Below are positions 5,703 to 60,122 of a stretch of 64,000 nt of DNA, piece after piece. Under the pieces are notes generated by a model. That model ran no database searches, was not told the origin of the DNA, and saw only the letters and a list, made by a program, of their open reading frames with translations. The stretch is from NCBI GenBank assembly GCA_937924775.1, contig CALDUT010000001.1, positions 310,001-374,000 on the forward strand, given 5' to 3'. How positions within the stretch are numbered: position 1 is the stretch's first letter; each line of letters opens with the position of its first letter. Made by a program: the position numbers and the translations under genes. Origin of the DNA: an uncultured Gemmata sp. (GTDB lineage Bacteria > Planctomycetota > Planctomycetia > Gemmatales > Gemmataceae).

Positions 5703-5976
5703 ACTCGGATCGGGCCAACCGACCGTTCACCTTCCCATCAAGACCTTGGAGGGCGTTTTCAACAGATCATCGGTACCCATGAAAAAGCTGTGAATTTTCC
5801 CCATTGGTACCCGAAAGCCGCAGCCGCATGGACTTCCGCCACGATACCACTGAGAGCGTGGCAGATCATATCACGATCTCTGTTTTGGCAAAATGACCGG
5901 TCGGCGGCCGAGTGCCGGCACGGCTGCGAATCGGGAGTTCGCAATCCCGCCCACGGCTGTGGGGCGGGGGAGGCCC
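5677..5976. other. Intergenic region between convergent genes, 300 bp
   Basis: It lies between the ends of ftr and the next sulfatase. Apart from the right arm of the ftr hairpin I see nothing in it. A 73-codon minus-strand frame at 5759-5980 has no ribosome binding site and no recognisable sequence. Confidence 0.4.
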
Positions 5977-7743
5977 TCACTTCTTTTGAACCGTCACATA
6001 AAAGGCACCGCAGAGGTCCTGGCCGTTGGCATCCGCGAACCAGGCTTTGAAGGTGGTTTTGCCGGCCGGGAGCTTCGCGGTGAGAGTGACACCGGTTTGC
6101 CGCGGATCGGCCGGAGCTTCTGCTGTAATAGTGGCGATAGCGATTTTGCCCCGGGCGATCGTGGGGAAGGCCACCGTCGTGCGTTTTCCTGGGGGGCGAT
6201 TGTCCGGGGATTTGTCACTGGGTTCGTATTTATCCCCCAGCGCCGCCCCGGTTTGCTCGGGCCAGCGGCGTAGGGTAAACTGATATTCGCCCGGCTGTTC
6301 GACAAAGATATGCCAGCGGCCCCCCGTCGGCCCACCGACGGCTTGGCGGACATAGCCGCTATTATCCGCGTAGATGTTCTCCCAATCCCCGCTATTGAGT
6401 TCCACGACCGGTTGCTGTTTCGACCCGATACTGATGGGAACGAAATCATCCCGAAGCGGTTCAACACCCTTCCACCACTGTTCGTAATAATCCCGCAGTG
6501 TGGTCAAAATATCACTATGTTGATCCGCAAGGTTCGTTTTTTGTTGGCGGTCGGCGTGGATGTCGTACAGTTCGTTCCCATGAACCAGTCGCCACTGGCC
6601 CCAAATGACACACGCCTCGAACTTTTTGGGGATTTGCCCGTATTGGACGACGAATTTACGGTCGGGGAAATCCGCCATTTTCCCCCGCAACAGCGGCACA
6701 AGACTCTGACCGCGATAGGGTTCGTCCTTGGGGTCCCCTTTGGGTCGGTCGATACCGCACAGTTCACACAGCGTGGGGAAAAGATCGGTATTTTGGGTGG
6801 GAGTGTCGATGTCCCGCGGCTCACCGAGGCGACCTTGAGGCCAACGTATCCAACAGGGCACCCGATGCCCACCTTCGTAGTACATCGTTTTACGCCCGCG
6901 CAAACCGGCGTTGAAGAGGTTGACGCCGGCGGTCCCGCCGTTGTCAGTCATGAAAATCACGATGGTGTTGTCGCGGAGCTTTTCCCGGACCAGAAATTGG
7001 TCCAGGTCGCCGAAGCGTTTGTCGAGGTGGGCGATCATGCCGAAGAAGCCGGCCGGACCTTGGCCCTGATACGGCCGGATGTATTCGTCCAGGTCAATAT
7101 GTGGCGCATGGGGGGCGTTGGTGGGAATGTAACAGAAGAACGGCTGCTTCTGGGTCTGGCATTCCTTCATCCAGGCCATGGCGCTATCGAACCAAAAATC
7201 GGTGCAGTGGCCTTTGTACCGTTTTTGAACGCCGTTGTGGAAGTAGCGGCCGTCGATGAGTGGCCAATCGAATTCGGGGGTGCTGTGCAGTTGACCCCAA
7301 CCGAGATGGTAAATCGCTTCGTGGAAGCCTTTGTCCATGGGGCGATGCGGGTAGTGGTCGCCGAGATGCCATTTGCCGAAAAGGCCAGTGCGGTAACCGG
7401 CTTGGGCGAAGACCTCCGGCAGCGTCGGCAAACCGGGGCGCAGGAAGGTTCGCCCCGCGGTCACGCTGGTGACCCCGTTGCGCAGAGCGCTGAGGCCACT
7501 CATGAGTTGCCCGCGGGTGGGGCTGCACATGGGGCTGACGTGGAAATCGGTGAAGCGAACCGCTTCTTTCGCGAATGCATCCAGATGCGGCGTTTTCAGC
7601 ACCGGATTGCCCGTGAAGGAAAAGTCGCCCAGCCCCTGGTCGTCGGTCATGACAATCAGGACATTCGGCCTGGCGGTGTCCGCGGCCAGTGCCGGAGCTG
7701 TGGCGATTCCCGCAATCATCAGAGAGAGCATACATCGAGACAT
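5977..7743 (-). CDS. Secreted sulfatase with C-terminal extension
   Basis: The 588-residue sulfatase has a short signal peptide (cleavage near ALAADT, residues 18-23), the metal-site segment 'LIVMTDDQGLGD' and the maturation motif CSPTR with its cysteine at residue 73. GKWHLGDHYP and 'FMTDNGGTAG' follow. After the usual end of the sulfatase fold ('ELYDIHADRQQKTNLAD') there is about 140 extra residues. They resemble a small beta-sandwich module ('NSGDWENIYADNSGYVRQAV', 'KTTFKAWFADANGQDLCGAF'), possibly a carbohydrate-contact domain as seen in other planctomycete sulfatases. The ATG at 7743 follows GTGAGG; a GTG five codons upstream is less likely. It lies 63 bp downstream of the natural end of the next sulfatase gene, so the two were probably co-transcribed. 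Confidence 0.92.
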   Translation of the reverse strand: MSRCMLSLMIAGIATAPALAADTARPNVLIVMTDDQGLGDFSFTGNPVLKTPHLDAFAKEAVRFTDFHVSPMCSPTRGQLMSGLSALRNGVTSVTAGRTFLRPGLPTLPEVFAQAGYRTGLFGKWHLGDHYPHRPMDKGFHEAIYHLGWGQLHSTPEFDWPLIDGRYFHNGVQKRYKGHCTDFWFDSAMAWMKECQTQKQPFFCYIPTNAPHAPHIDLDEYIRPYQGQGPAGFFGMIAHLDKRFGDLDQFLVREKLRDNTIVIFMTDNGGTAGVNLFNAGLRGRKTMYYEGGHRVPCWIRWPQGRLGEPRDIDTPTQNTDLFPTLCELCGIDRPKGDPKDEPYRGQSLVPLLRGKMADFPDRKFVVQYGQIPKKFEACVIWGQWRLVHGNELYDIHADRQQKTNLADQHSDILTTLRDYYEQWWKGVEPLRDDFVPISIGSKQQPVVELNSGDWENIYADNSGYVRQAVGGPTGGRWHIFVEQPGEYQFTLRRWPEQTGAALGDKYEPSDKSPDNRPPGKRTTVAFPTIARGKIAIATITAEAPADPRQTGVTLTAKLPAGKTTFKAWFADANGQDLCGAFYVTVQKK

Positions 7744-7806
7744 TTTCGCAAACCTCACGCGTGTTTGGGCCCAGTACCGAAAGTTGTTGGCGGACAGCCC
7801 AGAAGG

Positions 7807-7935
7807 TTACTGCGGTTTTTGGGAAGGCGCGTTGTCCTTCCAACCGGTCGCCAGTTGCTGGGCGAGTTTTTCGATCAGGGATTTGTTGGCCGGATCGTCG
7901 GCGCTATTGGTCTTTTCGTGGGGATCGGTTTGCTA
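7807..7935 (-). pseudogene. Detached C-terminal coding remnant of the sulfatase at 7933-9285
   Basis: In the same frame as the sulfatase upstream, the codons after the TAG at 7933-7935 still read 'QTDPHEKTNSADDPANKSL' and continue to a TAA at 7807-7809. That is the normal C-terminus of iduronate-2-sulfatase-like proteins. The stretch is 42 codons long and undamaged apart from the TAG itself. Confidence 0.75.
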
Positions 7936-9285
7936 GTCGTACAATTCGCGGGCCACAACTTCGCCATTCGTGCGTTTCCGCCACTCCACGTAGCGGTAAC
8001 GGTCGGTGCGGATCGCATAGCCCATGAGAGGGCCGGTGTCCTTGGTGCTGCGGGGATACGAACTGAACGCCGCGGCTTTCCACCGCTGCGTGAGGTCATC
8101 CAGAAGCGGTGCGAAACTGTGGCCTTCCACTCCTTGGCGTCGAGGCAAACCACACACCTCAACCAGTGTTGGGTAGATGTCGATGAGTTCCACCAAGGCC
8201 TCGGTCGTGCGGCCGGGGGCTTTTTGATCCGGGCGGCTCATCACCAGAGGGGCACGCGTCGCTTGTTCGTAGTTGGTATGCTTGCACCACATGCCGTGAT
8301 CGCCCAGATGCCAACCGTGATCCCCCCACAGGATAATCACGGTATTATCGGCGAAGCCATGGTCCTTGAGGGCATCGAGAACCCGCCCCACTTGGACATC
8401 CATGTAACTGACGGCGGCGCAGTAACCGTGAACCAGCTTCTTGGCTGTATCGGGGGGGATGGGGCCAGTGGCCGGGATATCGTGGTAGGCCCGCAATTCG
8501 GCACTATTGGTGAGCGCGAAGGCCGGGGCTCCCTGCAGCGGCTTCGACGACTCAGCAGCCGGGGGTTTGTCGGCCTCGTACAGGTCCCAGTATTTCCGGG
8601 GGGCCACAAACGACAGGTGTGGTTTGATAAACCCGACGGCGAGAACGAAGGGTTCTTTCTGACCTTTGCGGGCTTTGAGAATTGCGCTGGCCCGCTGGGC
8701 GGTCCAGCCGTTGTTGAGATAATCGTCGGCCACGTCGGGGACTTTCAAAGGCAAGCCACGCACGCGGGTCACATCCTCCGCGGCAGCTTTGGCTTTCGCT
8801 CGCAGTTCTGCAAGGAGCTTTTGCCTTTGTTCGCCAAAACCGCGGCCTTGACTGGCTTCCCACGGTACACGCCACGAGGCCTCATCGGTGAGGCTGCCAT
8901 GGTAGATTTTCCCCACCCCGTGGACGTAGTAGCCGTGGTTCTTGAAGTACTGCGGAAGGGTGACCAGGTGGGGGTGTTTGTCGCGGAAGTGTGTGGTGTT
9001 CTGCCAAACACCAATCGTATCGGGTCGGCAACCGGTGAGAAGCGACGACCGCAACGGATTGCAAACCGCTTGCTGGCAGTAAGCGCGCGTGAAGACCGTG
9101 CCGCGTTGAGCCAGCCGGTCGATGTGAGAGGTTTTCGCATACGGATCGCCCGCACACCCGAGGGTGGGTTTCAGATCATCAACCGCGATGAATAGTACGT
9201 TCAGCTTGGGCTCGTCCGCAGACCCCCGCGGGGTTAAAGCCAACAGTAGGGTGAAGGACGCGGCAAAAACGAGTGTCAGACGCAT
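7933..9285 (-). CDS. Iduronate-2-sulfatase-like secreted sulfatase, ended early by an in-frame TAG
   Basis: The 450-residue product has a signal peptide (residues 1-23) and the sulfatase start 'NVLFIAVDDLKPTLGC'. The maturation site reads CNPLR, with cysteine 75 and leucine at 78 where close relatives have serine (CNPSR). 'VGKIYHG' and 'ILWGDHGWHLGDHGMW' are intact. Translation stops at TAG (7933-7935) right after 'ARELYD', but the frame continues with well-conserved family sequence to 7807, so the natural protein should be 492 residues. Both oddities, TCG to TTG and probably CAG to TAG, are C-to-T changes on the coding strand. The start at 9285 has AGGAA five bases upstream. It may be a recent pseudogene, a slightly shortened active enzyme, or a sequencing error. 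No amber-suppressor tRNA is visible here. Confidence 0.8.
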   Translation of the reverse strand: MRLTLVFAASFTLLLALTPRGSADEPKLNVLFIAVDDLKPTLGCAGDPYAKTSHIDRLAQRGTVFTRAYCQQAVCNPLRSSLLTGCRPDTIGVWQNTTHFRDKHPHLVTLPQYFKNHGYYVHGVGKIYHGSLTDEASWRVPWEASQGRGFGEQRQKLLAELRAKAKAAAEDVTRVRGLPLKVPDVADDYLNNGWTAQRASAILKARKGQKEPFVLAVGFIKPHLSFVAPRKYWDLYEADKPPAAESSKPLQGAPAFALTNSAELRAYHDIPATGPIPPDTAKKLVHGYCAAVSYMDVQVGRVLDALKDHGFADNTVIILWGDHGWHLGDHGMWCKHTNYEQATRAPLVMSRPDQKAPGRTTEALVELIDIYPTLVEVCGLPRRQGVEGHSFAPLLDDLTQRWKAAAFSSYPRSTKDTGPLMGYAIRTDRYRYVEWRKRTNGEVVARELYD

Positions 9286-9329
9286 GAAAATTCCTCACCG
9301 GCAGACCGTCTTCGGGAAGCGTCAGAACG

Positions 9330-10853
9330 TTATTTGTCGGGCACAGGAAGGATGCGGAACGGCGCGGCAGGCAGGCCACGCCCGTTTGCAAGGTTGCAGG
9401 TGGGGTTGGATGCCCACGCATAGCGCACCGCCACCGGTTTCTTCACATCAGGATGAAACACGACGACCGTATCGCCCTCAATGCGTGCGGTCGCGGGCTT
9501 CCACACCATATCGGGGCCAGCGATTTCGAAGCCTTTCACGCCCCCGGGGGCTTGCAAGCCGCCGTCGGTATGCCTGAAGGAAACGACTATCGTGCCCTCA
9601 CTCACGGTGTGCTTCGCCAGCAGTGGGCCACTGGTGGCGATGCCTTTCTGGCCATACACCCCTCCCAACGCCCACAGTGCCAGCCGCCGGCCGACTTCCT
9701 GTTTATTGACCGGGTGAATGTCTTTCGGATCGCCAATGTCGATGGTGATGGCCATTCCCGTGTTGGGCAACTGGAGTGTGCGCAACATGCCCTCTCGGAC
9801 GAGCGACCAGCCGTCGCCAGGGCGTTCGAAATTCGGCAGTTGCACCCACGCGAAGGGCAATTCCTCGCCCCAGCGGCTGCGCCAATCGGTCACGAGAGCC
9901 TGGAGCTGGTGGTGATACAACGCCGCCCGCTCGGGAGAATGTGTGTTGGCTTCCCCCTGATACCACAGAACGCCGCGGATGGCGAAAGGAATGAGCGGAT
10001 GAATTTTGCCGTTAAAAAGCCCGCCCGGCGGTCCGCGGCGCTCGTGCGCGGCGACCGGATCGGTTGGCCGCGCCGGCGGCCTCTGGCCGGCGGCTTTGGC
10101 CGCTTCGGCCTGTTCACGCCAGCGGGCCAGCGCCTTGGCGTAATTCTCTTGGGCCTTCGCGACATCGAAATTCTTATACGCTTTCACGCTGGCTTCGTGG
10201 GCCGCTTGGAGTTCTGGGATGCGGGCTTGCACATCGGCAGCAATCCACGATTCAATCGGGGTTCCGCCCACCGAGGAGTTGATCAGCCCTATGGGAACCT
10301 TCAATTCCCGGTGCAATTCCCGGCCGAAAAAGTAGAGTGTCGCGGAAAAGCCGCCCACCGTGTCCGGGGAACAGACAGTCCACGTCCCGGTGGCATCGGT
10401 TTGAGGTGTAGCGCTGGCCGGGGATTTTTCCTGGAACATGCGAATCTGCGGGTACTGGGCCACGGCTTTCTCCGCCGCGAAGTCGCGGCAGCGGCTGACC
10501 GTCATGGCCATGTTCGATTGCCCTGAACCGAGCCACACTTCGCCCACCAGCACATCCTTCACTTCCAACTTCCCCGCGGCCGACGAAACCACCAACGAGC
10601 GTGGCTCGGCACTGGCCGCGAGTTGGTCCAGTTGCACTTGCCAGCGGCCCTGCGCATCGGCGACAGCCGAGTGCATTTGCCCCGCGAAGGTGACGGTGAT
10701 CTTCTCGTTGGGGCTGGCCCAGCCCCATACCGGCACGGGTTTGTTCCGCTGGAGAACCATGTGATCGGCAAAGACGGCGGCCAGTTTCACGTCCGCGGCC
10801 ACTAACGGGGAGGCCAGCCACAGCACCACGACAAGGAAGAAGAAGCGTTTCAT
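9330..10853 (-). CDS. Sialate O-acetylesterase-like carbohydrate esterase (SGNH fold), secreted
   Basis: The 507-residue exported esterase probably removes O-acetyl groups from sugars. A signal peptide covers residues 1-20 (…ASPLVAA). A beta-rich N-terminal domain starts 'VKLAAVFADHMVLQRNKPVP', the usual opening of bacterial 9-O-acetylesterases. The SGNH nucleophile motif GEVWLGSGQSNM places the serine at residue 113. 'WYQGEANT' and the catalytic DxxH segment 'DIGDPKDIHPVNK' follow. A charged helical insertion (roughly 215-270) sits between the blocks. It stands 44 bp upstream of the TAG-interrupted sulfatase, so deacetylation and desulfation of one glycan may be coupled; that link is inferred from context. 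The site before ATG 10853 is weak. Confidence 0.88.
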   Translation of the reverse strand: MKRFFFLVVVLWLASPLVAADVKLAAVFADHMVLQRNKPVPVWGWASPNEKITVTFAGQMHSAVADAQGRWQVQLDQLAASAEPRSLVVSSAAGKLEVKDVLVGEVWLGSGQSNMAMTVSRCRDFAAEKAVAQYPQIRMFQEKSPASATPQTDATGTWTVCSPDTVGGFSATLYFFGRELHRELKVPIGLINSSVGGTPIESWIAADVQARIPELQAAHEASVKAYKNFDVAKAQENYAKALARWREQAEAAKAAGQRPPARPTDPVAAHERRGPPGGLFNGKIHPLIPFAIRGVLWYQGEANTHSPERAALYHHQLQALVTDWRSRWGEELPFAWVQLPNFERPGDGWSLVREGMLRTLQLPNTGMAITIDIGDPKDIHPVNKQEVGRRLALWALGGVYGQKGIATSGPLLAKHTVSEGTIVVSFRHTDGGLQAPGGVKGFEIAGPDMVWKPATARIEGDTVVVFHPDVKKPVAVRYAWASNPTCNLANGRGLPAAPFRILPVPDK

Positions 10854-10943
10854 GGTCGATCTCGAGGAATCTACCAGAGAGAACGTCTCGTTGAAAGAAA
10901 CCCATCGACGGGAGAATCAGGCACCCCATCGCTGAAAACGAAG

Positions 10944-12713
10944 TTACTTTCTTAGAATCAGTTCGACCTGCTGCACATCCGCGACTTGCCGGCCGAGAAT
11001 TTTCGTCGCTCGCAGCGTGAGTGTACCTTTCCCCGCCGGCAGTTCCACGATGCCCAAGGACATGGGCCGGAAGTCCTTCACATACGATTCCGCACCCCGG
11101 TGGACGCGGTCGTGTTCTCGCCCGCGTAAGGGTGGATCGTAGGCCTCACGGATTGTGCCCGTCCATTGGGCATTTCCCAAAACCAATTCCACGGTCGAGC
11201 CGACATCGGCAGCGGGGCAGGTGTAGCGCAGGATCGCTTCATAGCGGCCGGCGGTGCGTACGTCGATGTCCCACGTCATGCGGTCCTCCGGTTTGGTCCA
11301 ATGCGTGAAGAAGGAGCAGTTCGGGGCGTTGGCACTCCGCTTGACACCCGCGTGGGGAATACCGTCGCGGGCGGGCAACACCGTGCGCGGAAATTCCGGA
11401 TAACCAACCGGGAACGGCCGTGGGTCGCCGGCGGGCCAGGCACTGAGAACGTCGCGTTTCCATGTAGCGATGGCAGCGGTGAGTTTCTTCACCACCTCCG
11501 GTTTTGTGTCCGCGATGTTGTGGGTCTGGCCCGGGTCGGCGTGCATGTCGAATAGTTGCCCGGTGTGGTCAAGCCGGTAGCGTTGGTCGCGAGCGCTGAT
11601 GCGGCCCGCCCAATGTTGAAACAACACGCGGTCGGGCATTTTCCTGTTCTGGCCCAGTAACAGCGGGGCGAAGCTGATACCATCGAATGGTCGATCCCCG
11701 ACACGGCGAATGCTGGCGAGGTCGATGAGCGTGGGGTAGAGGTCGATCGCGGCGGCAATGGGTGTCACCACGGTGCCCGGTGGGATCTGCCCTGGCCAGC
11801 GGATATGCAGGGGCGACCGCACACCGCCTTCGTCGGTGCTGCCTTTCTGCCCTTTCATCCCACCGTTCCAACGTGCGCCGTTGGGTCCATTATCGCTGAA
11901 GTACACCACGATGGTTTTGTGGTCGATGCGGTTTTCGCGTAGCGCCAGCAGCAGCCGGCCCACGTTGTCGTCGATGTTTTCGCACATCGCCAGTGCGGCC
12001 CGGGTGTGGTCGAGGTTCTCTTTCTGGGTTCCGCTGAGCGCAAGCGGGGCTTGCGCGAACCGCCGCCAGTATTCGTCAGGAACTTGCATCGGTGAGTGGG
12101 GCGTGTTGAAGGCGAGGTACACGAACGATGGCCGCCCGGCGGTGGCGTTCGTCTTCAAAAAGTCGATCGCGCGGGTGGTGAGGTCGTCGGTGATGTAGCC
12201 GGTTCCCCTCACATCTTTACCGTTGTGATCCAGCAGCGGGTCGAAGTATTCGCCCCAATGCCCCGAGGTGAAGCCGTAAAACTCGCGGAAGCCGCGGGCG
12301 TTGGGATGGTAGGGGTATTGGGTGCCGTTGTGCCATTTGCCGAAACAGGCGGTCGCGTAGCCGGCGGCTTGGAAGGCTTCAGCGATGGTACGTTCGTCGA
12401 GGTTGAGCCGCTCTTGCCCGGTGCTGACGCCTTGGACACCGCCGCGGGGGTGCCAGCGGCCGGTGAGGAATTCGGCCCGCGTCGGCGAACAGACCGGTTG
12501 AACAAAGAAGCGTTCGAACTTAGCTCCGTCTTGGGCGAGGGAATCGACGTGCGGTGTGCGCAGGTTGGTATTGCCGTTGAGGCTCAGGTCGCCCCAACCC
12601 TGATCGTCAGTGAGAATCACCACCACGTTCGGTTTCTCTGCGGCTGGCAGCGGGGCCGACACGCCGCCGGTCAGTATCGCGACCACCAGCCGTAACAGGG
12701 TGGAGGAATGCAT
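10944..12713 (-). CDS. Secreted arylsulfatase with C-terminal extension
   Basis: The 589-residue sulfatase has a signal peptide ending near 'PLPAAEKPN' (residue 25). The metal-site segment is 'VVILTDDQGWGDLS', and CSPTR has its cysteine at residue 75. 'ACFGKWHNGTQYPYHP' and 'VYFSDNGPNGARWNGG' are intact. Beyond 'QLFDMHADPGQTHNIAD' it carries about 150 extra residues with a beta-sandwich look ('GRYEAILRYTCPAADVGSTV', 'GKGTLTLRATKILG'). Similar tails occur on planctomycete sulfatases and may contact the substrate. It is 90 bp upstream of the sialate O-acetylesterase gene on the same strand. The ATG at 12713 has no strong Shine-Dalgarno but gives a clean signal peptide. The substrate is unknown. 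Confidence 0.92.
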   Translation of the reverse strand: MHSSTLLRLVVAILTGGVSAPLPAAEKPNVVVILTDDQGWGDLSLNGNTNLRTPHVDSLAQDGAKFERFFVQPVCSPTRAEFLTGRWHPRGGVQGVSTGQERLNLDERTIAEAFQAAGYATACFGKWHNGTQYPYHPNARGFREFYGFTSGHWGEYFDPLLDHNGKDVRGTGYITDDLTTRAIDFLKTNATAGRPSFVYLAFNTPHSPMQVPDEYWRRFAQAPLALSGTQKENLDHTRAALAMCENIDDNVGRLLLALRENRIDHKTIVVYFSDNGPNGARWNGGMKGQKGSTDEGGVRSPLHIRWPGQIPPGTVVTPIAAAIDLYPTLIDLASIRRVGDRPFDGISFAPLLLGQNRKMPDRVLFQHWAGRISARDQRYRLDHTGQLFDMHADPGQTHNIADTKPEVVKKLTAAIATWKRDVLSAWPAGDPRPFPVGYPEFPRTVLPARDGIPHAGVKRSANAPNCSFFTHWTKPEDRMTWDIDVRTAGRYEAILRYTCPAADVGSTVELVLGNAQWTGTIREAYDPPLRGREHDRVHRGAESYVKDFRPMSLGIVELPAGKGTLTLRATKILGRQVADVQQVELILRK

Positions 12714-47132: not shown

Positions 47133-47460
47133 ATGCAACTGGAAGACTACTTCGAGTTCCCCACCACGCCGGCGGAATGTATCCGCATCAAAGATACGCG
47201 GATCGACCTCGATTTTGTGATCGAGTTGTACAAACGCCCCATGACCCCGGAGCAGATCGCGGTCTGCTTCCGCTGCCCGCTGGAACTGGTGCCAGTATAT
47301 GCCCCACGATCACCTACTAGCTGCAAAACCAAGCAGCCATCAACGCCTACCTCGAACGCCGAGAGAAAATTGCCGAGGAGAACTATCAAGCTTATCTCCA
47401 ACAAACCGCCTTGCGAAGCGGTCAAGCGGATAGGGGCCATCAAAGCGACACGACAGGCAA
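47133..47460 (+). pseudogene. DUF433 antitoxin-like gene, broken by frameshift and nonsense codon
   Basis: The first 58 codons from ATG 47133 read 'MQLEDYFEFPTTPAECIRIK' and '…LELVPVY', the fold of DUF433 proteins, usual antitoxin partners of DUF5615. At 47301-47306 (GCCCCACG) the frame shifts; the next frame reads 'TITYY', where the second Tyr is a TAG (47318-47320). It then continues 'LQNQAAINAYLERREKIAEE', clearly the rest of the domain. Two independent lesions therefore separate the halves. The original 3' end cannot be fixed, and I place it before the next start. It lies 18 bp after nuoE. An unbroken 214-codon frame across both genes is an artefact of the shifts. Confidence 0.8.
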
Positions 47461-47477
47461 ACACAAGTGGTGGCGTC

Positions 47478-47820
47478 ATGAAGCAGGTCCAGTTTCTGCT
47501 GGACGAAAATGTACCCGACTGGGTCCAAGATGCCATAATCGCTGTCGAGCCCTCGATCGTGGTACGGAAGATCGGCGAACACCCCAGTGTGCCCTCCAAA
47601 GGGTACATCGGATGCGGATGTTGTGTAATTTACGGAAGCCGAAGAATTGGCGATTGTCACCTTCGACAAGAAGACCATACCACGTTGCGTCGTCGAGCAT
47701 TTGGCCAGAGGTTATCATACCTGGGGAATCTGTCTGTTTTCCCAAGGGAATCAATTATCGGCAGAGTTCATTGCTGAGGAATTGGTCATGGTGTGGGCCA
47801 CATCGCACCGTGAAGAATAG
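47478..47820 (+). pseudogene. DUF5615 PIN-like toxin gene, broken by frameshift and nonsense codon
   Basis: From ATG 47478 the frame reads 'MKQVQFLLDENVPDWVQDAI', the start of DUF5615 PIN-like nucleases with the metal-site Asp-Glu pair. After 'HPSVPSK' (about 47600) the frame shifts by one base at a GGG. The new frame reads 'GTSDADVV', then TAA (47626-47628), then 'FTEAEELAIVTFDKKTIPR' and 'GNQLSAEFIAEELVMVWATS' to TAG at 47820. The second acidic segment (TFDKK) is intact but out of frame. With the DUF433 remnant it made a two-gene toxin-antitoxin module. Both genes are inactivated, so loss of toxin and antitoxin is consistent. Confidence 0.8.
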
Positions 47821-47902
47821 ATCGACCGAATTGAATATGTTCCATAAGAACTGACTTTTCATACACGAATAGTAACTCGACGCACAAACCCGTAACCGAC
47901 CT

Positions 47903-49267
47903 ATGCCCTACGAACCAGTACTGCTTGCTCGCATTCACAAGCCGGATAGCACCCGGTTGGAAGGTTATCGCGCCGATGGCGGCTACGAAACCTTCGCACG
48001 GGTGTTGAAAGAAAAACAGCCCCACGAGGTTGTACAGCAAGTCAAAGATAGCGGGCTGCGCGGCCGCGGTGGGGCTGGCTTCCCCTGCGGGCTGAAATGG
48101 ACCTTCCTCCCCAAAGACCACCCCGGGCCGATTTACCTGTGCGTCAACGCTGATGAATCGGAACCGTGTACCTACAACAACCGCATCCTGATGGAGAAAG
48201 ACCCCCATCAGGTACTCGAAGGCGTCATGCTGGCCTGCTACGCCATCCGCTCGCAGAAAGCCTTCTACTACATCCGCTACGAGTACGGTGACGCCTATCG
48301 GGCAACCCAAGCCGCCGTCGACGAACTCTACGCGGCGGGGCTTCTTGGCCAGAACATCCTCGGCAGTGGGTTCAACCTCGATATCGTCGTCCACCGGGGC
48401 GCGGGGGCCTATATCTGTGGGGAAGAAACCGGCCTGATTGAATCACTCGAAGGCAAACGGGCTTGGCCGCGAATCAAACCGCCTTTCCCTGCCATCGAAG
48501 GAGCCTTCCGGAAGCCAACGATTGTCAACAACGTCGAAACGCTGGCGTGTGTGAATCAGATCCTGCGCCGTGGCGTCGATTGGTTCAAATCGCTCGGGGT
48601 GCCGCCCAACCCCAATAACCCTCGCGACGCTGGCAGCTATGGCCCGAAATTGTACACCCTTGCGGGGCATGTCGAAAAACCGTGCTGCGTTGAATTGCCG
48701 ATGGGGGTCACACTCCGGGAATTAGTCGAACAACACGGCGGCGGTGTTTGGAAAGGCCGCAAAGCCAAAGCGATCAATCCCGGGGGCTTGAGCATGGGCT
48801 TCATTCGCTGCGATGCTCCCCTCAAAGGCGAAGACGGTAAAACCGAGTATGATATTCCCCTCGACTTCAACGGCCCCGGGCAAGCCGGCTGCCTCGGTTT
48901 GGGCACAGCCGCTGTGACGGTCATCGACGACCAAACCAGCATGATCGACGTTGTGCACAATACCTGCCAGTTCTTCGCTCATGAAAGCTGCGGGCAATGC
49001 ACCCCCTGCCGGGAAGGCACCGGCTGGATGCTCAAAATCATGGATCGGATGCGCCGCGGACTAGGCCGTCGCGAAGACCTCGACATTCTCATTGACGTGG
49101 CCGAACGAATCGGCATCATGCCCGGCACAACCATCTGCGGACTCGCCGACGGTGCCGGTTGGCCGGTGAAAACCGCGATCCGCAAGTTCCGCGATGAGTT
49201 CGAAGCGGCTATCAAAAGCGGCACGACGAGCCGATACGCCAAGTCGCTGGCCATGGCCGGGCACTGA
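47903..49267 (+). CDS. nuoF: NADH-quinone oxidoreductase subunit F
   Basis: The 454-residue catalytic subunit binds NADH, FMN and [4Fe-4S] cluster N3. 'GLRGRGGAGFPCGLKWTFLP' is the glycine-rich nucleotide loop. 'VNADESEPCTYNNRILME' and 'GAGAYICGEETGLIESLEGK' build the FMN/NADH site. The cluster ligands are in 'HESCGQCTPCREGTGWML', with the fourth at 'GTTICGLADGAGWP'. The length is normal. No strong ribosome binding site precedes ATG 47903. That may reflect insertion of the toxin-antitoxin pair, whose last codon lies 82 bp upstream. Confidence 0.96.
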   Translation: MPYEPVLLARIHKPDSTRLEGYRADGGYETFARVLKEKQPHEVVQQVKDSGLRGRGGAGFPCGLKWTFLPKDHPGPIYLCVNADESEPCTYNNRILMEKDPHQVLEGVMLACYAIRSQKAFYYIRYEYGDAYRATQAAVDELYAAGLLGQNILGSGFNLDIVVHRGAGAYICGEETGLIESLEGKRAWPRIKPPFPAIEGAFRKPTIVNNVETLACVNQILRRGVDWFKSLGVPPNPNNPRDAGSYGPKLYTLAGHVEKPCCVELPMGVTLRELVEQHGGGVWKGRKAKAINPGGLSMGFIRCDAPLKGEDGKTEYDIPLDFNGPGQAGCLGLGTAAVTVIDDQTSMIDVVHNTCQFFAHESCGQCTPCREGTGWMLKIMDRMRRGLGRREDLDILIDVAERIGIMPGTTICGLADGAGWPVKTAIRKFRDEFEAAIKSGTTSRYAKSLAMAGH

Positions 49268-49289
49268 TAACCCCTCGGGAGATCCCGCG

Positions 49290-50039
49290 ATGCGTTTCCG
49301 TCTTCTAATCGCGATTCTGCTGGCATTGCTGCTGGTCAGTGGGTGTGGGAAGCGGGTCAGCCAAAAGCCGGCACGCCACAACGAGGAAACGGCCGCCCTC
49401 CCGTCGCGTCCACCATCCGCCCCGGCCCTCGCCACCGAAAACCCCACAAAAACTCCCGACAAAGCCCCCCCCAATGAGGACGAACCCAATTGGCTCAAAC
49501 CTGATCCTCGGCCCGAATCCAACCCCGGTCCTGGTGGCAACGGCAAGGTGCCGGGGGCGATTGTCCCCCCCGATGGGGGCTGGCACCCCCCCAACCCCAG
49601 CCTCCCACCGAAGCCGCAACCCCAACCCCAACCCCCAGCCGTCGATCCCCCCAAGCCGCCCGGCCCAGGCCGACTCGATCCGCAGCCCCAGCCGGCCCAA
49701 CCACCAGCGAAACGGCCAGCGGTCGAACCCACCGAACTTCCGGTCGTGACCGAAGCCGATATGAAGGAGGTGTGGATTTTCATTGAGAACGCCTCGTTGG
49801 CCAGCGGAAAAATGCCGCCCCCGGTACTCACTTATAGTGCTTTGGTCGAAGCGAAATCCCCAGCCGCGCCATTGGTGAAAGCCGGTTCCATCTACCTCAC
49901 CGGCTCCCCGCAACGCGAAAGCATCTGGGCTTTCGACTTCCGCGCCCTCAGTCGCGGCGATCCGGTGCTGGTCGCCACACAAAACGGTGTCGAAACCCTC
50001 AGCGTGGAACAGCTCAAAGTCCGACTCAGCGGGAGATAG
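49290..50039 (+). CDS. Proline-rich lipoprotein inserted between nuoF and nuoG
   Basis: The 249-residue protein has a lipoprotein signal (MRFRLLIAILLALLLVSGCG, lipid Cys at residue 19). A low-complexity region of about 130 residues rich in Pro, Gln and Lys ('PKPQPQPQPPAVDPPKPPGP') follows. The C-terminal domain of about 90 residues ('EADMKEVWIFIENASLASGK', 'GSIYLTGSPQRESIWAFDFR') has a beta-rich look. I recognise no family. GGGAG precedes ATG 49290 by nine bases, and it begins 23 bp after nuoF, so it is co-transcribed with complex I genes. The Pro-rich tether could span the periplasm to hold the C-terminal domain near the wall or outer membrane; that is a guess from composition. Confidence 0.82.
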   Translation: MRFRLLIAILLALLLVSGCGKRVSQKPARHNEETAALPSRPPSAPALATENPTKTPDKAPPNEDEPNWLKPDPRPESNPGPGGNGKVPGAIVPPDGGWHPPNPSLPPKPQPQPQPPAVDPPKPPGPGRLDPQPQPAQPPAKRPAVEPTELPVVTEADMKEVWIFIENASLASGKMPPPVLTYSALVEAKSPAAPLVKAGSIYLTGSPQRESIWAFDFRALSRGDPVLVATQNGVETLSVEQLKVRLSGR

Positions 50040-54414: not shown

Positions 54415-55638
54415 ATGACACTGTTGGCACTGAGTCAAACGCAGGAAAGTACGATCTTTGTCGCCCTCGCGACGATGTTGGGCATCGCGGGAGTGTTTTG
54501 GTTACTACCGCGACCGAAGGGGCGGTTCGTACCGGGCGGGATCGCCTTGTTGATCGCCGCGGCCGCGGTGTTTGGCACTTGGTTGTACCAAACCTTCGGT
54601 CAACCGATGCCGGATGTGATCGGCTCAACGCTGTTTTGGCTATTTGCCGCCGGGGCCCTCGTTTTTGGGACTGTTCTCGTCACCCAGCGTAATCCGGCAC
54701 GCGGCGCTTTAGCCTTCGCATTCGTGATTCTGAGCACCTGCGGGCTATTCCTGCTGTTGGCGGCGACCTTTCTGATGGCCGCGACGATCATCATCTACGC
54801 CGGGGCGATCGTCGTGACATTCCTCTTTGTGCTGATGCTCTCGCCTTCCAACGCCCCATCCGACGAAAACGACCGCAGCCGCGAGCCCCTCGCCGGAGCG
54901 CTCGCCGGGTTCGCCTTCGTCGGACTGGTGCTTCTGGCGTTGTTCCAAACCAGTATGGCCACTCAGCGGGATCATTTGCTGGCGCAATTGGTAACTGCCG
55001 ACGAACGGCAGAAACTCGCCGCGGCGATCGCTCAGTTGGAAGCGGCTGAAAAAGCTCTCAGTGGCGATACCAGCACCGCCATCGCGCGTGATGAGCGTTT
55101 GGCGGCGTTTGAGATGGCTTTCGCCCCGGTGCGTGACGAATTGGCTGAAGTGGTAGGGGTCTCCAGCGCCGAGCAAATTCAAAGCCCGCAAGAAGGGTCG
55201 CTCCCGCAGCGGTTGGGCCGCTGGGGAGACGCCGTGGGCGAACCTGAGAAACTCTTTCGCGCCGATATCTCAGCCCGACAAACGCTAACACAAGCCGCGA
55301 CTGTCCGCGAATTGCTGCATCAGGTTCCGCAGAAGGTGGAAGCGATCGTCAGTATGCCGCCCCCGGGTCACCCCCCGGATGTGGCCGCGGCCCAAGCGGA
55401 AGTGCGGAAGCTCCGGGATGCCGTGGTGATTCTCCATGGAGCCGGACTGTTGCCGGCCCGGAATGTCGCGAACTTGGGCTATGTGTTGTATTCCGAGCAC
55501 CTGCTGGCCATAGAGTTGGCCGGAGTTTTACTGCTGGTAGCCACCATCGGTGCGGTGGCCATTTCCCACCGGAAACCGGAGCGTTCGTCGACGAACTCTC
55601 CGACGCCGGCTCCCGCCCAGGCGGAGGGGGTGCAGTGA
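54415..55638 (+). CDS. nuoJ: NADH-quinone oxidoreductase subunit J with large insertion
   Basis: The conserved NuoJ core lies at about 73-178 ('STLFWLFAAGALVFGTVLVT', 'ATFLMAATIIIYAGAIVVTF') and 353-383 ('NLGYVLYSEHLLAIELAGVL'). At 407 residues it is about twice the usual size. Two extra hydrophobic segments precede the core (13-31, 41-58). About 170 soluble residues (181-352), Ala/Glu/Gln-rich and partly coiled-coil-like ('AAAIAQLEAAEKALSGD'), are inserted before the last helix. In known structures the loop between helices 4 and 5 faces the periplasm, so the insert should lie there. It ends in a GTGA overlap with nuoK. All family residues around the pi-bulge helix appear present. Confidence 0.93.
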   Translation: MTLLALSQTQESTIFVALATMLGIAGVFWLLPRPKGRFVPGGIALLIAAAAVFGTWLYQTFGQPMPDVIGSTLFWLFAAGALVFGTVLVTQRNPARGALAFAFVILSTCGLFLLLAATFLMAATIIIYAGAIVVTFLFVLMLSPSNAPSDENDRSREPLAGALAGFAFVGLVLLALFQTSMATQRDHLLAQLVTADERQKLAAAIAQLEAAEKALSGDTSTAIARDERLAAFEMAFAPVRDELAEVVGVSSAEQIQSPQEGSLPQRLGRWGDAVGEPEKLFRADISARQTLTQAATVRELLHQVPQKVEAIVSMPPPGHPPDVAAAQAEVRKLRDAVVILHGAGLLPARNVANLGYVLYSEHLLAIELAGVLLLVATIGAVAISHRKPERSSTNSPTPAPAQAEGVQ

Positions 55639-56066
55639 CCATCACTCTGTGGCATTTTCTCGCGGTGGCGACCGTGTTGTTCGGTCTGGGTTGGGTCGGT
55701 TTTCTCACCCGGCGCAACCTGATCACCATGTTTTTGTGTGCGGAGATGATGCTGCAAGGCGTCGCGATCAATTTCGTGGCCTTCGCGTTCTACCACGGGA
55801 ATTTGCAAGGCCAAGTGTTTGTGTTGTTCCTGCTGGCGGTCGCCGCGTGTGAAGCTGGCATCTCCTTAGCATTATTTGTCAGCCTCTATCGCCGCCAGCG
55901 GTCGTTGGATAGCTCTGATTGGCAGGAGTTGCGGGAACTGGGCCTGCCGCCGGCGGTAGATGAAGAGCCGCTGCCCGCGGTGTCGGAAGAATCCTTCCCC
56001 ACGCTGCCTCCTGCGGGGGTTCGTCCGCAGCCAACGGTGGGTACGGAGGAGGTCGCCCGTGTCTGA
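55635..56066 (+). CDS. nuoK: NADH-quinone oxidoreductase subunit K with C-terminal extension
   Basis: The 143-residue three-helix subunit is part of the antiporter-like chain. The two buried glutamates are visible in 'TMFLCAEMMLQGVAINFVAF' and 'LLAVAACEAGISLALFVSLY'. After the core (about 1-95) a soluble tail of some 48 residues follows, acidic and Pro-rich ('LGLPPAVDEEPLPAVSEES'), absent from the 100-residue E. coli protein. The start is a GTG overlapping the nuoJ stop (GTGA), and the gene overlaps nuoL by eight bases, so J, K and L are translationally coupled. Confidence 0.94.
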   Translation: MTITLWHFLAVATVLFGLGWVGFLTRRNLITMFLCAEMMLQGVAINFVAFAFYHGNLQGQVFVLFLLAVAACEAGISLALFVSLYRRQRSLDSSDWQELRELGLPPAVDEEPLPAVSEESFPTLPPAGVRPQPTVGTEEVARV

Positions 56067-58064: not shown

Positions 58065-60122
58065 ATGTCGATCAACGCTGTTCTCCGCCTTGTCGTTTTG
58101 CTCCTGGTGCTAATGCCGCTGGCGTCGGCTCTGTTGGTGCCATGGTTGGGCCGCTTCGCCCGGCGGACCGCGATGATTCTAGCGCTTGTACATGTCGGGC
58201 TGACCGCTGCGGTGGTGGCAATGGCGATTCCCACCATCGCCCTGCGTGCCGAAGACGACACCGGCCGCGGCAGCAACAGCATGGCCTTCCAACCGGAATT
58301 CGTGCCCGGCGATACCTACGCCCGCTTCAACGACGATGGCAGCGAGGGGCGCACCCGTTGGACGCTTCTGCGGCTTTCGGCCAATCCCGCGCCCGTGGGC
58401 CAACCCGGAACGAGCATCCAATTTTTCCTCGGGATTGATGGCTTGAATCTATGGCTGGTAGCCCTGGCCAGCTTTATGCTCGTGCCGGTTGTTCTCATCT
58501 CGTGGAACACCGTCACGGACAAACCGGGGGCTTATTATGGCCTGCTTTTCCTGCTCCAGGCCGGTCTGATCGGCTGCTTCCTCGCTTTCGACGTCATTCT
58601 CTTTTACGTGTTCTTTGAACTGACGCTGATCCCGGCCTTTTTCCTGATTGGCCGCTGGGGCGTTGGCTCAGGGCGACGGGATGCAGCCCGGAAATTCTTC
58701 TTGTACACGCTAGCGGGCAGTTTGCTGACGCTCTTGGGAATTGTCGGAGTCGTCTTAACCAATCCCGTTCCTGTTCACCCGGAAACGGGATTCTCCACGC
58801 AAAGTATTCTCGTGAAAGTCGAAGTGCCAGACGACAGCAGCCCCACCGGCAAAGCCCGCGAGTTCGTTTTGGCCCAGCGCGTACATACGTTCTCCCTGCC
58901 CGATCTGATGACCGCAGTCACCCGGTGGTTGACCGCGGAAAAAACAGCCCGCGCCGCCCTTGCTGAAGCCCAACGGGAACTGGAACTGGCACAATCCCTC
59001 GTCCGCGCGGGGGAACGCGAACTGGCTCAACGCCGCGCCGCCCTCGAAGCTGCCCGCCAAGGTAAAGACCCCCAAGCGATCCGCACCGCCGAAGCCGCGG
59101 TGCAACAGTCTGTTCAAATGTTGAACAACTGGCGGGTGGACTTCAACGCCGCTGTCCGACTTTACGACAGTGCAGTCAAACTCCTCCCCGAAGCCGAACG
59201 GTTGCAAGCCAACGCCTACCACTGGCAATTCTGGCTATTTGTCGCCCTCATGGCCGGCTTCATGGTGAAAGTGCCGATCTGGCCGTTCCATACCTGGCTG
59301 CCCGCGGCCTACAGTGAGGCCCCTCTAGGGGTGGTGATGCTCCTGTCGGGGCTGATGGCCAAACTGGGGACCTTCGGCATTGTGCGGCTAGTCCTGCCCC
59401 TGGTGCCGGATGCCGCGATGCAGTATGGCTTGCCAGTGATTGGTGTGTTGGCTTCCTTCGGCATCGTGTACGCGGCTTTCTGTGCTTATGCTTCCAAGGA
59501 TATGAAGCTCTTGATCGCGTACAGCTCGGTCTCTCACCTCGGTTTTCTAGTGCTGGGAATCTTCGCTTTCAATAGCGAAGGCCTTAGCGGCGCGGTGCTG
59601 CACATGATCAACCACGGACTGAGTACCGGGGCGTTGTTCGCCGTCCTGAGCTTTTTCACCAGTCGCTACGGCACTACCGAAATGGCCCGTTTCGGCGGAT
59701 TGATGGGCCGCTTCCCGGTGCTGGCCGTCCTGACGTTCGTCCTGGCGCTAGCCAGTGTCGGATTGCCCGGTTTGAACAATTTCGTCAGCGAAATGCTCCT
59801 GCTCGCCGGGCTATTCCATACAAACAACCCGAATGTCACGAACCTGTGGCCGGCCGTTGTGGCCGCCTTCGGCATCTTCCTCGGGGCTTGGTACACCCTC
59901 ACCCTGTTACAACGGGTGTTCTTCAACCCGCTGAAGGAGCCACCACCAATTATCACAACGCCGATAACCGATGTGAACAATCGTGAGTTTTACGCTCTGG
60001 GTCTTCTGGCCATGCTGTGCCTGGTGTTGGGGCTGTTCCCGCAACTGCTGCTCGACACAATCAAGCCAGAAGTGCAAATCCTCGCCAACATCGGCGACGC
60101 AGCCCGTAGCCGGGTACCCTAA
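58065..60122 (+). CDS. nuoM: NADH-quinone oxidoreductase subunit M with coiled-coil insertion
   Basis: This antiporter-like subunit is 685 residues long against roughly 500 in most bacteria. Proton-path residues Glu185 (YVFFELTLIPAFF) and Lys402 (MVKVPIWPFHTWLPAAYSEAP) are intact. The added length is in two places: about 50 residues between the second and third helix (62-116), and about 150 residues (235-385) between the helices that carry the Glu and the Lys. The second begins as a beta-rich segment and becomes an Ala/Glu/Arg coiled coil ('AALAEAQRELELAQSLVRAG'). By known topology that loop faces the periplasm. It is in frame and without stops, so it is a real insertion. It starts 50 bp after nuoL. 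Confidence 0.94.
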   Translation: MSINAVLRLVVLLLVLMPLASALLVPWLGRFARRTAMILALVHVGLTAAVVAMAIPTIALRAEDDTGRGSNSMAFQPEFVPGDTYARFNDDGSEGRTRWTLLRLSANPAPVGQPGTSIQFFLGIDGLNLWLVALASFMLVPVVLISWNTVTDKPGAYYGLLFLLQAGLIGCFLAFDVILFYVFFELTLIPAFFLIGRWGVGSGRRDAARKFFLYTLAGSLLTLLGIVGVVLTNPVPVHPETGFSTQSILVKVEVPDDSSPTGKAREFVLAQRVHTFSLPDLMTAVTRWLTAEKTARAALAEAQRELELAQSLVRAGERELAQRRAALEAARQGKDPQAIRTAEAAVQQSVQMLNNWRVDFNAAVRLYDSAVKLLPEAERLQANAYHWQFWLFVALMAGFMVKVPIWPFHTWLPAAYSEAPLGVVMLLSGLMAKLGTFGIVRLVLPLVPDAAMQYGLPVIGVLASFGIVYAAFCAYASKDMKLLIAYSSVSHLGFLVLGIFAFNSEGLSGAVLHMINHGLSTGALFAVLSFFTSRYGTTEMARFGGLMGRFPVLAVLTFVLALASVGLPGLNNFVSEMLLLAGLFHTNNPNVTNLWPAVVAAFGIFLGAWYTLTLLQRVFFNPLKEPPPIITTPITDVNNREFYALGLLAMLCLVLGLFPQLLLDTIKPEVQILANIGDAARSRVP

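What the first reader, a model, noticed from the sequence alone, without database searches (positions are those of the whole stretch)
58065..60122. NuoM with about 150-residue coiled-coil insertion between its proton-path helices
Residues 235-385 split the segment between the helices carrying Glu185 and Lys402, with a beta-rich start and a long Ala/Glu/Arg helix. Topology again predicts the periplasmic face, the same side as the NuoJ insert. Together with the NuoK tail this suggests an enlarged periplasmic surface on this complex I. It could be a docking site for partners or for the lipoprotein encoded between nuoF and nuoG; the last idea is speculative.
Basis: partly seen in the sequence, partly recalled or inferred. 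Interest (0 to 1): 0.55.

Follow-up and report, generated by a model that had tools for sequence, protein, structure and literature searches.

The report
Lengthened outer loop on NuoM
One subunit of this planctomycete's respiratory proton pump carries a predicted hairpin of two long helices on its outer face; it is an extreme, line-specific lengthening of an ordinary loop, kept by selection, and shows no sign of having evolved together with the similar loop on another subunit.

Summary
The feature is real. NuoM (58065-60122, 685 aa) has a 155-residue TM6-TM7 loop (residues 232-386); five solved relatives have 19-35. It is not one inserted block: the usual TFSLPDLM element is kept (275-282), and the loop is lengthened on both sides, by a probable beta-hairpin before and an antiparallel helical hairpin after (AlphaFold2, loop alone: helices 278-333 and 336-391, pLDDT 96-98 in the middle). 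Charges put it on the periplasmic face, away from the cytoplasm-facing half-channel. Proton-path residues are invariant in 116 of 116 aligned NuoM. The loop is under purifying selection, but its length runs from 21 to 155 in 87 loci of the order; only the window and one sister species reach 155. The NuoJ loop is far more widespread, and the two lengths are uncorrelated once kinship is allowed for. The NuoK tail is cytoplasmic by charge, and the lipoprotein's presence does not track the loop. Best reading: a periplasmic bracing element built into a core subunit, a new variant of a known kind; its function is unproven.

The parts
58065..60122 (+). nuoM, 685 aa, complex I antiporter-like subunit; E185 (TM5), K402 (TM7), K433 (TM8), E576 (TM12) kept
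58758..59222 (+). elongated periplasmic TM6-TM7 loop, residues 232-386 (155 aa)
58791..58886 (+). predicted beta-hairpin, residues 243-274 (strands 243-253 and 264-274), ahead of the conserved element; low confidence (block pLDDT 52-59)
58887..58910 (+). conserved TM6-TM7 loop element TFSLPDLM, residues 275-282
58896..59063 (+). predicted helix 1 of the helical hairpin, residues 278-333
59070..59237 (+). predicted helix 2, residues 336-391 in the loop-only model; in the poor full-chain model it is broken at 373 and 383-384
58236..58412 (+). TM2-TM3 loop of NuoM, also long (59 aa; 14-19 aa in 16 of 29 rows outside the order), periplasmic by charge pattern
54955..55485 (+). NuoJ TM4-TM5 loop, residues 181-357; more widespread than the NuoM loop and independent of it in length
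55635..56066 (+). nuoK with a C-terminal tail of about 40 aa, cytoplasmic by charge

Best explanation
NuoM is an ordinary proton-pumping complex I subunit whose periplasmic TM6-TM7 loop has grown, in part of this planctomycete order, into a small domain: a probable beta-hairpin, the ordinary loop element, and a long antiparallel helical hairpin (up to about 56 residues per helix, some 80 Angstrom at 1.5 A per residue). Shown: the loop's existence, limits, retention of the element, periplasmic charge pattern, purifying selection, graded lengths in relatives, intact pump residues. Predicted: the hairpin. Inferred: that it forms in the real complex, that its second helix leads straight into TM7, and that it braces or shields the periplasmic face of NuoM and a neighbour (NuoN or NuoL) without taking part in pumping, much as separate helix-turn-helix subunits do under mammalian ND4.
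For: Loop limits and net gain of about 123-137 residues over five solved chains. Growth on both sides of TFSLPDLM, and lengths from 21 to 155 in 87 order loci. Helical hairpin predicted twice: pLDDT 82-92 over residues 301-370 in the full-chain model, 96-98 in the middle of it in the loop-only model. Hydrophobic period of 3.5 residues: reached by 100 of 2000 shuffles for residues 284-332, 20 of 2000 for 336-372, 10 of 2000 for 336-382. No indel in the loop and dN/dS 0.18 against the sister genome. E185, K402, K433, E576 in 116 of 116 NuoM, 19 of 19 long-loop order rows included. Positive-inside charges. Precedents: ordered extensions and an insertion loop stabilise the E. coli peripheral arm (PMC8357420, passages); helix-turn-helix CX9C subunits lie on the IMS face, NDUFB10 at the bottom of ND4, and knock-outs have assembly defects (PMC8762328, passages).
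Against: No structure or functional data. The full-chain model is poor (mean pLDDT 49.3, pTM 0.40, six rows) and breaks the second helix at 373 and 383-384, against a straight run into TM7; AlphaFold2 on one sequence tends to make long straight helices (recalled). The periodicity of helix 1 is weak (100 of 2000 shuffles). The loop evolves faster than the core (dN/dS 0.18 against 0.064; its helical part 0.26), and 11 of 17 measured genomes of the same genus have 44-45 residues, so it is not needed for pumping and might do little. No contact surface was identified. No Foldseek PDB match reached E 0.001.
Confidence: 0.55

Rival explanations
1. Slack drift: the loop is a tolerated place for length change, and the Ala/Glu/Arg helices have little function beyond not disturbing the pump.
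For: Length varies from 21 to 155 within one order and changes at least 4 times (threshold 80) or 6 times (threshold 60) on the tree of 83 first-type loci; the helical parts of two clades show little similarity (2 of 24 pairs above z 3); faster change than the core; the second complex I has its own loop of 107-114 aa at the same place.
Against: dN/dS well under 1 and no indel across 23% loop divergence; heptad-like period in the window's helices (not tested in relatives); the beta part is recognisable between two clades (17 of 24 pairs above z 3).
Confidence: 0.23
2. Docking site: the helical stalk binds a periplasmic partner, such as another respiratory complex or a cell-envelope protein.
For: Long exposed antiparallel hairpins often serve as contact arms (general knowledge); the loop-only model would reach about 80 Angstrom.
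Against: No partner found; the nuoF-nuoG lipoprotein occurs in short-loop genomes of the same genus; the helical part changes faster than the rest of NuoM in the one pair compared.
Confidence: 0.15
3. The NuoJ and NuoM inserts are one co-evolved periplasmic structure.
For: Both are on the periplasmic side by charge, and the uncorrected lengths correlate (Spearman 0.57, 83 loci; 0.25, 65 order loci).
Against: No correlation after correction for kinship; each occurs long without the other. NuoN lies between NuoJ/NuoK and NuoM in the arm (PMC10212512 and PMC9271201, passages).
Confidence: 0.05

Closest known systems
NuoM / ND4 / Nqo13 of respiratory complex I (TIGR01972; solved 8qby_M, 8e9g_M, 3rko_M, 4he8_M)
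   Same: Sequence family, pump residues, gene order nuoJ-K-L-M-N, TM6-TM7 loop element
   Different: TM6-TM7 loop of 155 residues against 19-35 in the five solved chains compared; TM2-TM3 loop also longer
IMS helix-turn-helix CX9C subunits of mammalian complex I, chiefly NDUFB10 at the bottom of ND4
   Same: Helical hairpin on the P side of the ND4/NuoM subunit (predicted here)
   Different: Separate disulfide-bonded polypeptides there; here part of the core subunit, with no Cys in the loop; no homology claimed
Lineage-specific ordered loops of bacterial complex I, such as the 94-residue G-loop of E. coli NuoG
   Same: A large insertion loop in a core subunit, said to be unique among characterised homologues
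   Different: Peripheral arm and cytoplasm there; membrane arm and periplasm here
NuoM of the second complex I in the same genome (L186, G000:C10)
   Same: Long TM6-TM7 loop (108 aa) at the same place
   Different: Its NuoJ loop is only 16 aa; the loop sequence looks different

Membership tests
NuoM (complex I antiporter-like subunit) | Match to the curated NuoM subfamily model above its cut-off | tested here: met
   TIGR01972 429.7 bits, cut-off 263.8; the narrower NF NuoM models listed are not reached (best 381.7 against 550)
NuoM (complex I antiporter-like subunit) | Conserved Glu TM5, Lys TM7, Lys TM8, Glu TM12 | tested here: met
   E185, K402, K433, E576; 116 of 116 aligned rows
NuoM (complex I antiporter-like subunit) | Encoded between nuoL and nuoN in a nuo operon | tested here: met
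   H-I-J-K-L-M-N in order on the + strand
NuoM (complex I antiporter-like subunit) | Assembled in an active complex I | not testable with these tools
   needs biochemistry
CX9C helix-turn-helix accessory subunits (NDUFB10 type) | Cysteine pairs (CX9C) bridging the two helices | tested here: not met
   No Cys in the window's loop; 1 of 19 long-loop order rows has a single Cys
CX9C helix-turn-helix accessory subunits (NDUFB10 type) | Separate polypeptide | tested here: not met
   Loop is within the NuoM frame
CX9C helix-turn-helix accessory subunits (NDUFB10 type) | Helical hairpin on the P side of the ND4 subunit | tested here: inconclusive
   Predicted hairpin and charge topology; no solved structure

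The most novel reading that the evidence does not exclude
Probability: 0.13. Interest if true: 0.55.

Novelty: new variant of a known kind. Interest (0 to 1): 0.3.

Why it matters
Bacterial complex I is usually described as the compact core, with accessory mass added as separate subunits in eukaryotes (general knowledge). An order with loop lengths from 21 to 155 residues in the same core subunit is a natural series for asking what the periplasmic face of the pump tolerates and whether bracing it matters for stability. If the hairpin is truly continuous with TM7, it is also a natural handle on the helix that carries a key lysine.

Tried and rejected
Co-evolution of the NuoJ and NuoM loops: rejected on lengths. 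Single 150-residue insert: rejected, growth on both sides of a kept element. Internal duplication of helix 1 into helix 2: not supported (465 of 1000 shuffles score as high). Known domain in the loop: two Pfam matches at E up to 1, both under their cut-offs; two PDB sequences at E up to 1, best 0.37. Fold match: 921 Foldseek matches at E<=10, none at E<=0.001; the 50 listed are mostly long helical hairpins of unlike proteins. Regular-expression measurement of loops failed for many rows and was replaced by an alignment-based one. Pfam on three ORFs between nuoE and nuoF and on the lipoprotein found nothing. Papers: none held all of 'NuoM', 'insertion', 'complex I', 'Planctomycet'; the listed titles and abstract starts of further searches showed nothing on this loop (3 of 3 papers listed, 20 of 95, 15 of 146, 10 of 131, 6 of 6, 8 of 14); most subscription papers are not held, so this is no proof that nothing is in print. 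Rows dropped: of 102 genomes of the order, 4 had no match and 6 had only weaker ones (E 7e-47 at best) and were not fetched; five order rows were left out (L100, L130, L131, L133 broken or truncated; L171, whose 524-aa NuoM looks complete, was left out by mistake and by its length would be a short-loop row), and a NuoM frame over 800 aa (L119) was cut to its last 720 residues.

Full report
What is there. The window holds a nuo operon stretch, H-I-J-K-L-M-N on the + strand. nuoM is 58065-60122, 685 aa, without inner stops. It passes the NuoM model TIGR01972 (429.7 bits, cut-off 263.8), but the match is broken in two, as is Pfam Proton_antipo_M. In the five solved chains whose alignments were shown, the blocks leave 19-35 chain residues against 156-158 query residues, a net gain of about 123-137.

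Anatomy. In 116 aligned NuoM (121 rows, five dropped) the loop between TM6 and TM7 holds a short element, TFSLPDLM here; its Phe is aligned in 112 of 116. In the window 43 residues precede it and 104 follow it; 65 of 116 rows have 9-11 before and 77 of 116 have 7-28 after. So the loop was lengthened on both sides of an ordinary element. AlphaFold2 on the loop alone (residues 231-392, one sequence) gives strands 243-253 and 264-274 and helices 278-333 and 336-391, with block pLDDT 96-98 in the middle of the hairpin and 52-59 over the strands (mean 79.2, pTM 0.58). The full chain with a six-row alignment gives strands 247-254 and 265-272 and helices 278-332 and 336-372, at pLDDT 82-92 over residues 301-370, in an otherwise poor model (mean 49.3); there the second helix is followed by breaks at 373 and 383-384 before TM7. 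So whether helix 2 runs straight into TM7 (from about 387) is open. Hydrophobicity has a 3.5-residue period: 100 of 2000 shuffles reach it for residues 284-332, 20 of 2000 for 336-372 and 10 of 2000 for 336-382. No internal repeat was found.

Which side. With hand-set helix limits, loops of at most 60 residues hold 2 K/R in 52 residues on the side of the N-terminus and 11 in 75 on the other; the two longer loops on the N-terminal side hold 6 in 62 and 19 in 155 and were left out of that count. This puts the TM6-TM7 loop on the periplasmic side. In the literature the TMH8-9 and TMH10-11 loops of ND4 are named in the IMS-side pocket that NDUFB10 fills (with TMH11-12, which parity would not give; PMC8762328, passages). 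The N-terminal repeat, whose Glu of TM5 and Lys of TM7 form a pair, opens to the matrix or cytosol (PMC10212512, passages). So the loop does not sit in the proton path, although it lies between the two residues in sequence.

Is it real and kept? A second genome (G413, L081) has the same loop length, no indel in the loop, 77.4% loop identity against 89.3% in the core, and dN/dS 0.178 against 0.064 (the 43-residue part 0.038 with a nearly saturated dS; the helical part 0.264). It is thus selected, but looser than the core; this is one pair of genomes. Pump residues E185, K402, K433 and E576 are the same in 116 of 116 rows.

Distribution. The order has 102 genomes held; 98 have some match and 4 none. 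I took 91 places plus the window, leaving out six genomes with only weaker matches, and measured 87 (dropped rows are told in Tried and rejected). Loop lengths run from 21 to 155; 19 of 87 are at least 80 and 2 of 87 are 155, the window and G413. Of 17 measured loci of the same genus, two have 155, four 110-115 and eleven 44-45. A search with the loop alone finds 8 of 102 genomes: seven are in NuoM of this genus, and the eighth (G430) is a weak match on a contig other than that of its NuoM. On a tree of 87 loci (LG+G4, quick search, midpoint root, 11 open forks) long loops (>=80) need at least 4 changes and loops >=60 at least 6, four second-type rows left out. The beta part of three rows of the window's genus resembles that of eight rows of a sister clade and its genera (z above 3 in 17 of 24 pairs, range 0.9-7.8; the TNP at its start is shared with short loops too, which inflates this), while the helical part mostly does not (2 of 24 above 3). 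This fits an older beta part with repeated loss or regrowth of helices, but the count cannot tell gain from loss.

Test of the NuoJ link. The NuoJ TM4-TM5 loop is 175 residues in the window and at least 104 in 61 of 66 order loci where it could be measured. Of 92 loci with both loops, 25 have both long, 39 only NuoJ, 10 only NuoM, 18 neither (NuoM >=60, NuoJ >=80). Among the clearest splits, L191 has NuoJ 165 with NuoM 26, and the second complex I (L186, L197-L200) has NuoM 107-114 with NuoJ 15-23. The uncorrected rank correlation is 0.57 (83 loci), but independent contrasts give r = -0.02 (p = 0.84), and -0.13 (p = 0.32) in the order. The lengths say nothing on residue-level contact.

The NuoK tail follows RRQR after its last helix and is cytoplasmic by charge; similar tails stand in the two printed same-class rows from outside the order (L172, L185). 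The lipoprotein between nuoF and nuoG is found in 36 of 102 genomes, short-loop ones of the genus included, so its presence does not track the loop; binding was not tested.

How it works. Most likely the hairpin braces or shields the periplasmic face of NuoM and a neighbour. The comparison is with mammalian complex I, where disulfide-bridged helix-turn-helix subunits line the IMS face and NDUFB10 sits at the bottom of ND4 (PMC8762328, passages), and with the 94-residue G-loop of E. coli, an ordered insertion in a core subunit said to help stabilise the peripheral arm (PMC8357420, passages). It is not a member of the CX9C family: no cysteines in the loop and not a separate chain. The bracing step is inference. 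Drift with little function is the main rival, because close relatives do without the hairpin.

Verdict. A real, well-bounded, line-specific elaboration of a known subunit. The specific claims of a combined NuoJ-NuoM-NuoK periplasmic surface do not hold as stated. Interest is moderate to low (0.3), higher if the hairpin proves rigidly joined to TM7.

Noticed in passing
L186 (G000:C10:355000-369000), about 5799-11159: A second complex I gene set (J-K-L-M) in the same genome, with its own long NuoM TM6-TM7 loop (108 aa) but a NuoJ loop of only 16 aa; no NuoN was recognised in the stretch. Similar sets in L197-L200.
   Followed up: partly
54415-55638 (NuoJ): NuoJ has two extra predicted N-terminal membrane helices (residues 13-31 and 39-57) before the usual first helix; an N-terminal extension of 50 or more residues is in 64 of 66 order loci and 16 of 26 others.
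   Followed up: partly
55932-56066 (NuoK tail): A NuoK tail of about 40 aa, cytoplasmic by charge (pattern like SLDxSxWQxLRE ... PAGxxP), in the order and in two printed same-class rows outside it.
   Followed up: partly
58236-58412 (NuoM TM2-TM3 loop): This second periplasmic loop of NuoM is also long: 59 aa here, 27-92 in 87 order rows, 14-19 in 16 of 29 other rows.
   Followed up: partly
47133-47854: A stretch of about 0.7 kb between nuoE and nuoF with short ORFs that looked to me (recall only) like a toxin-antitoxin remnant; Pfam found nothing in three ORFs.
   Followed up: partly
49194-50039: Proline-rich lipoprotein-like ORF between nuoF and nuoG, no Pfam or NCBIfam match, found in 36 of 102 genomes of the order.
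   Followed up: partly
L175, L176, L177 (other planctomycetes): NuoM loops of 134-144 aa in complex I sets outside the order; the NuoJ loop is 35 (L176) and 20 (L177), and no nuoJ was found in L175. In L175 and L176 the growth lies before the loop element.
   Followed up: no
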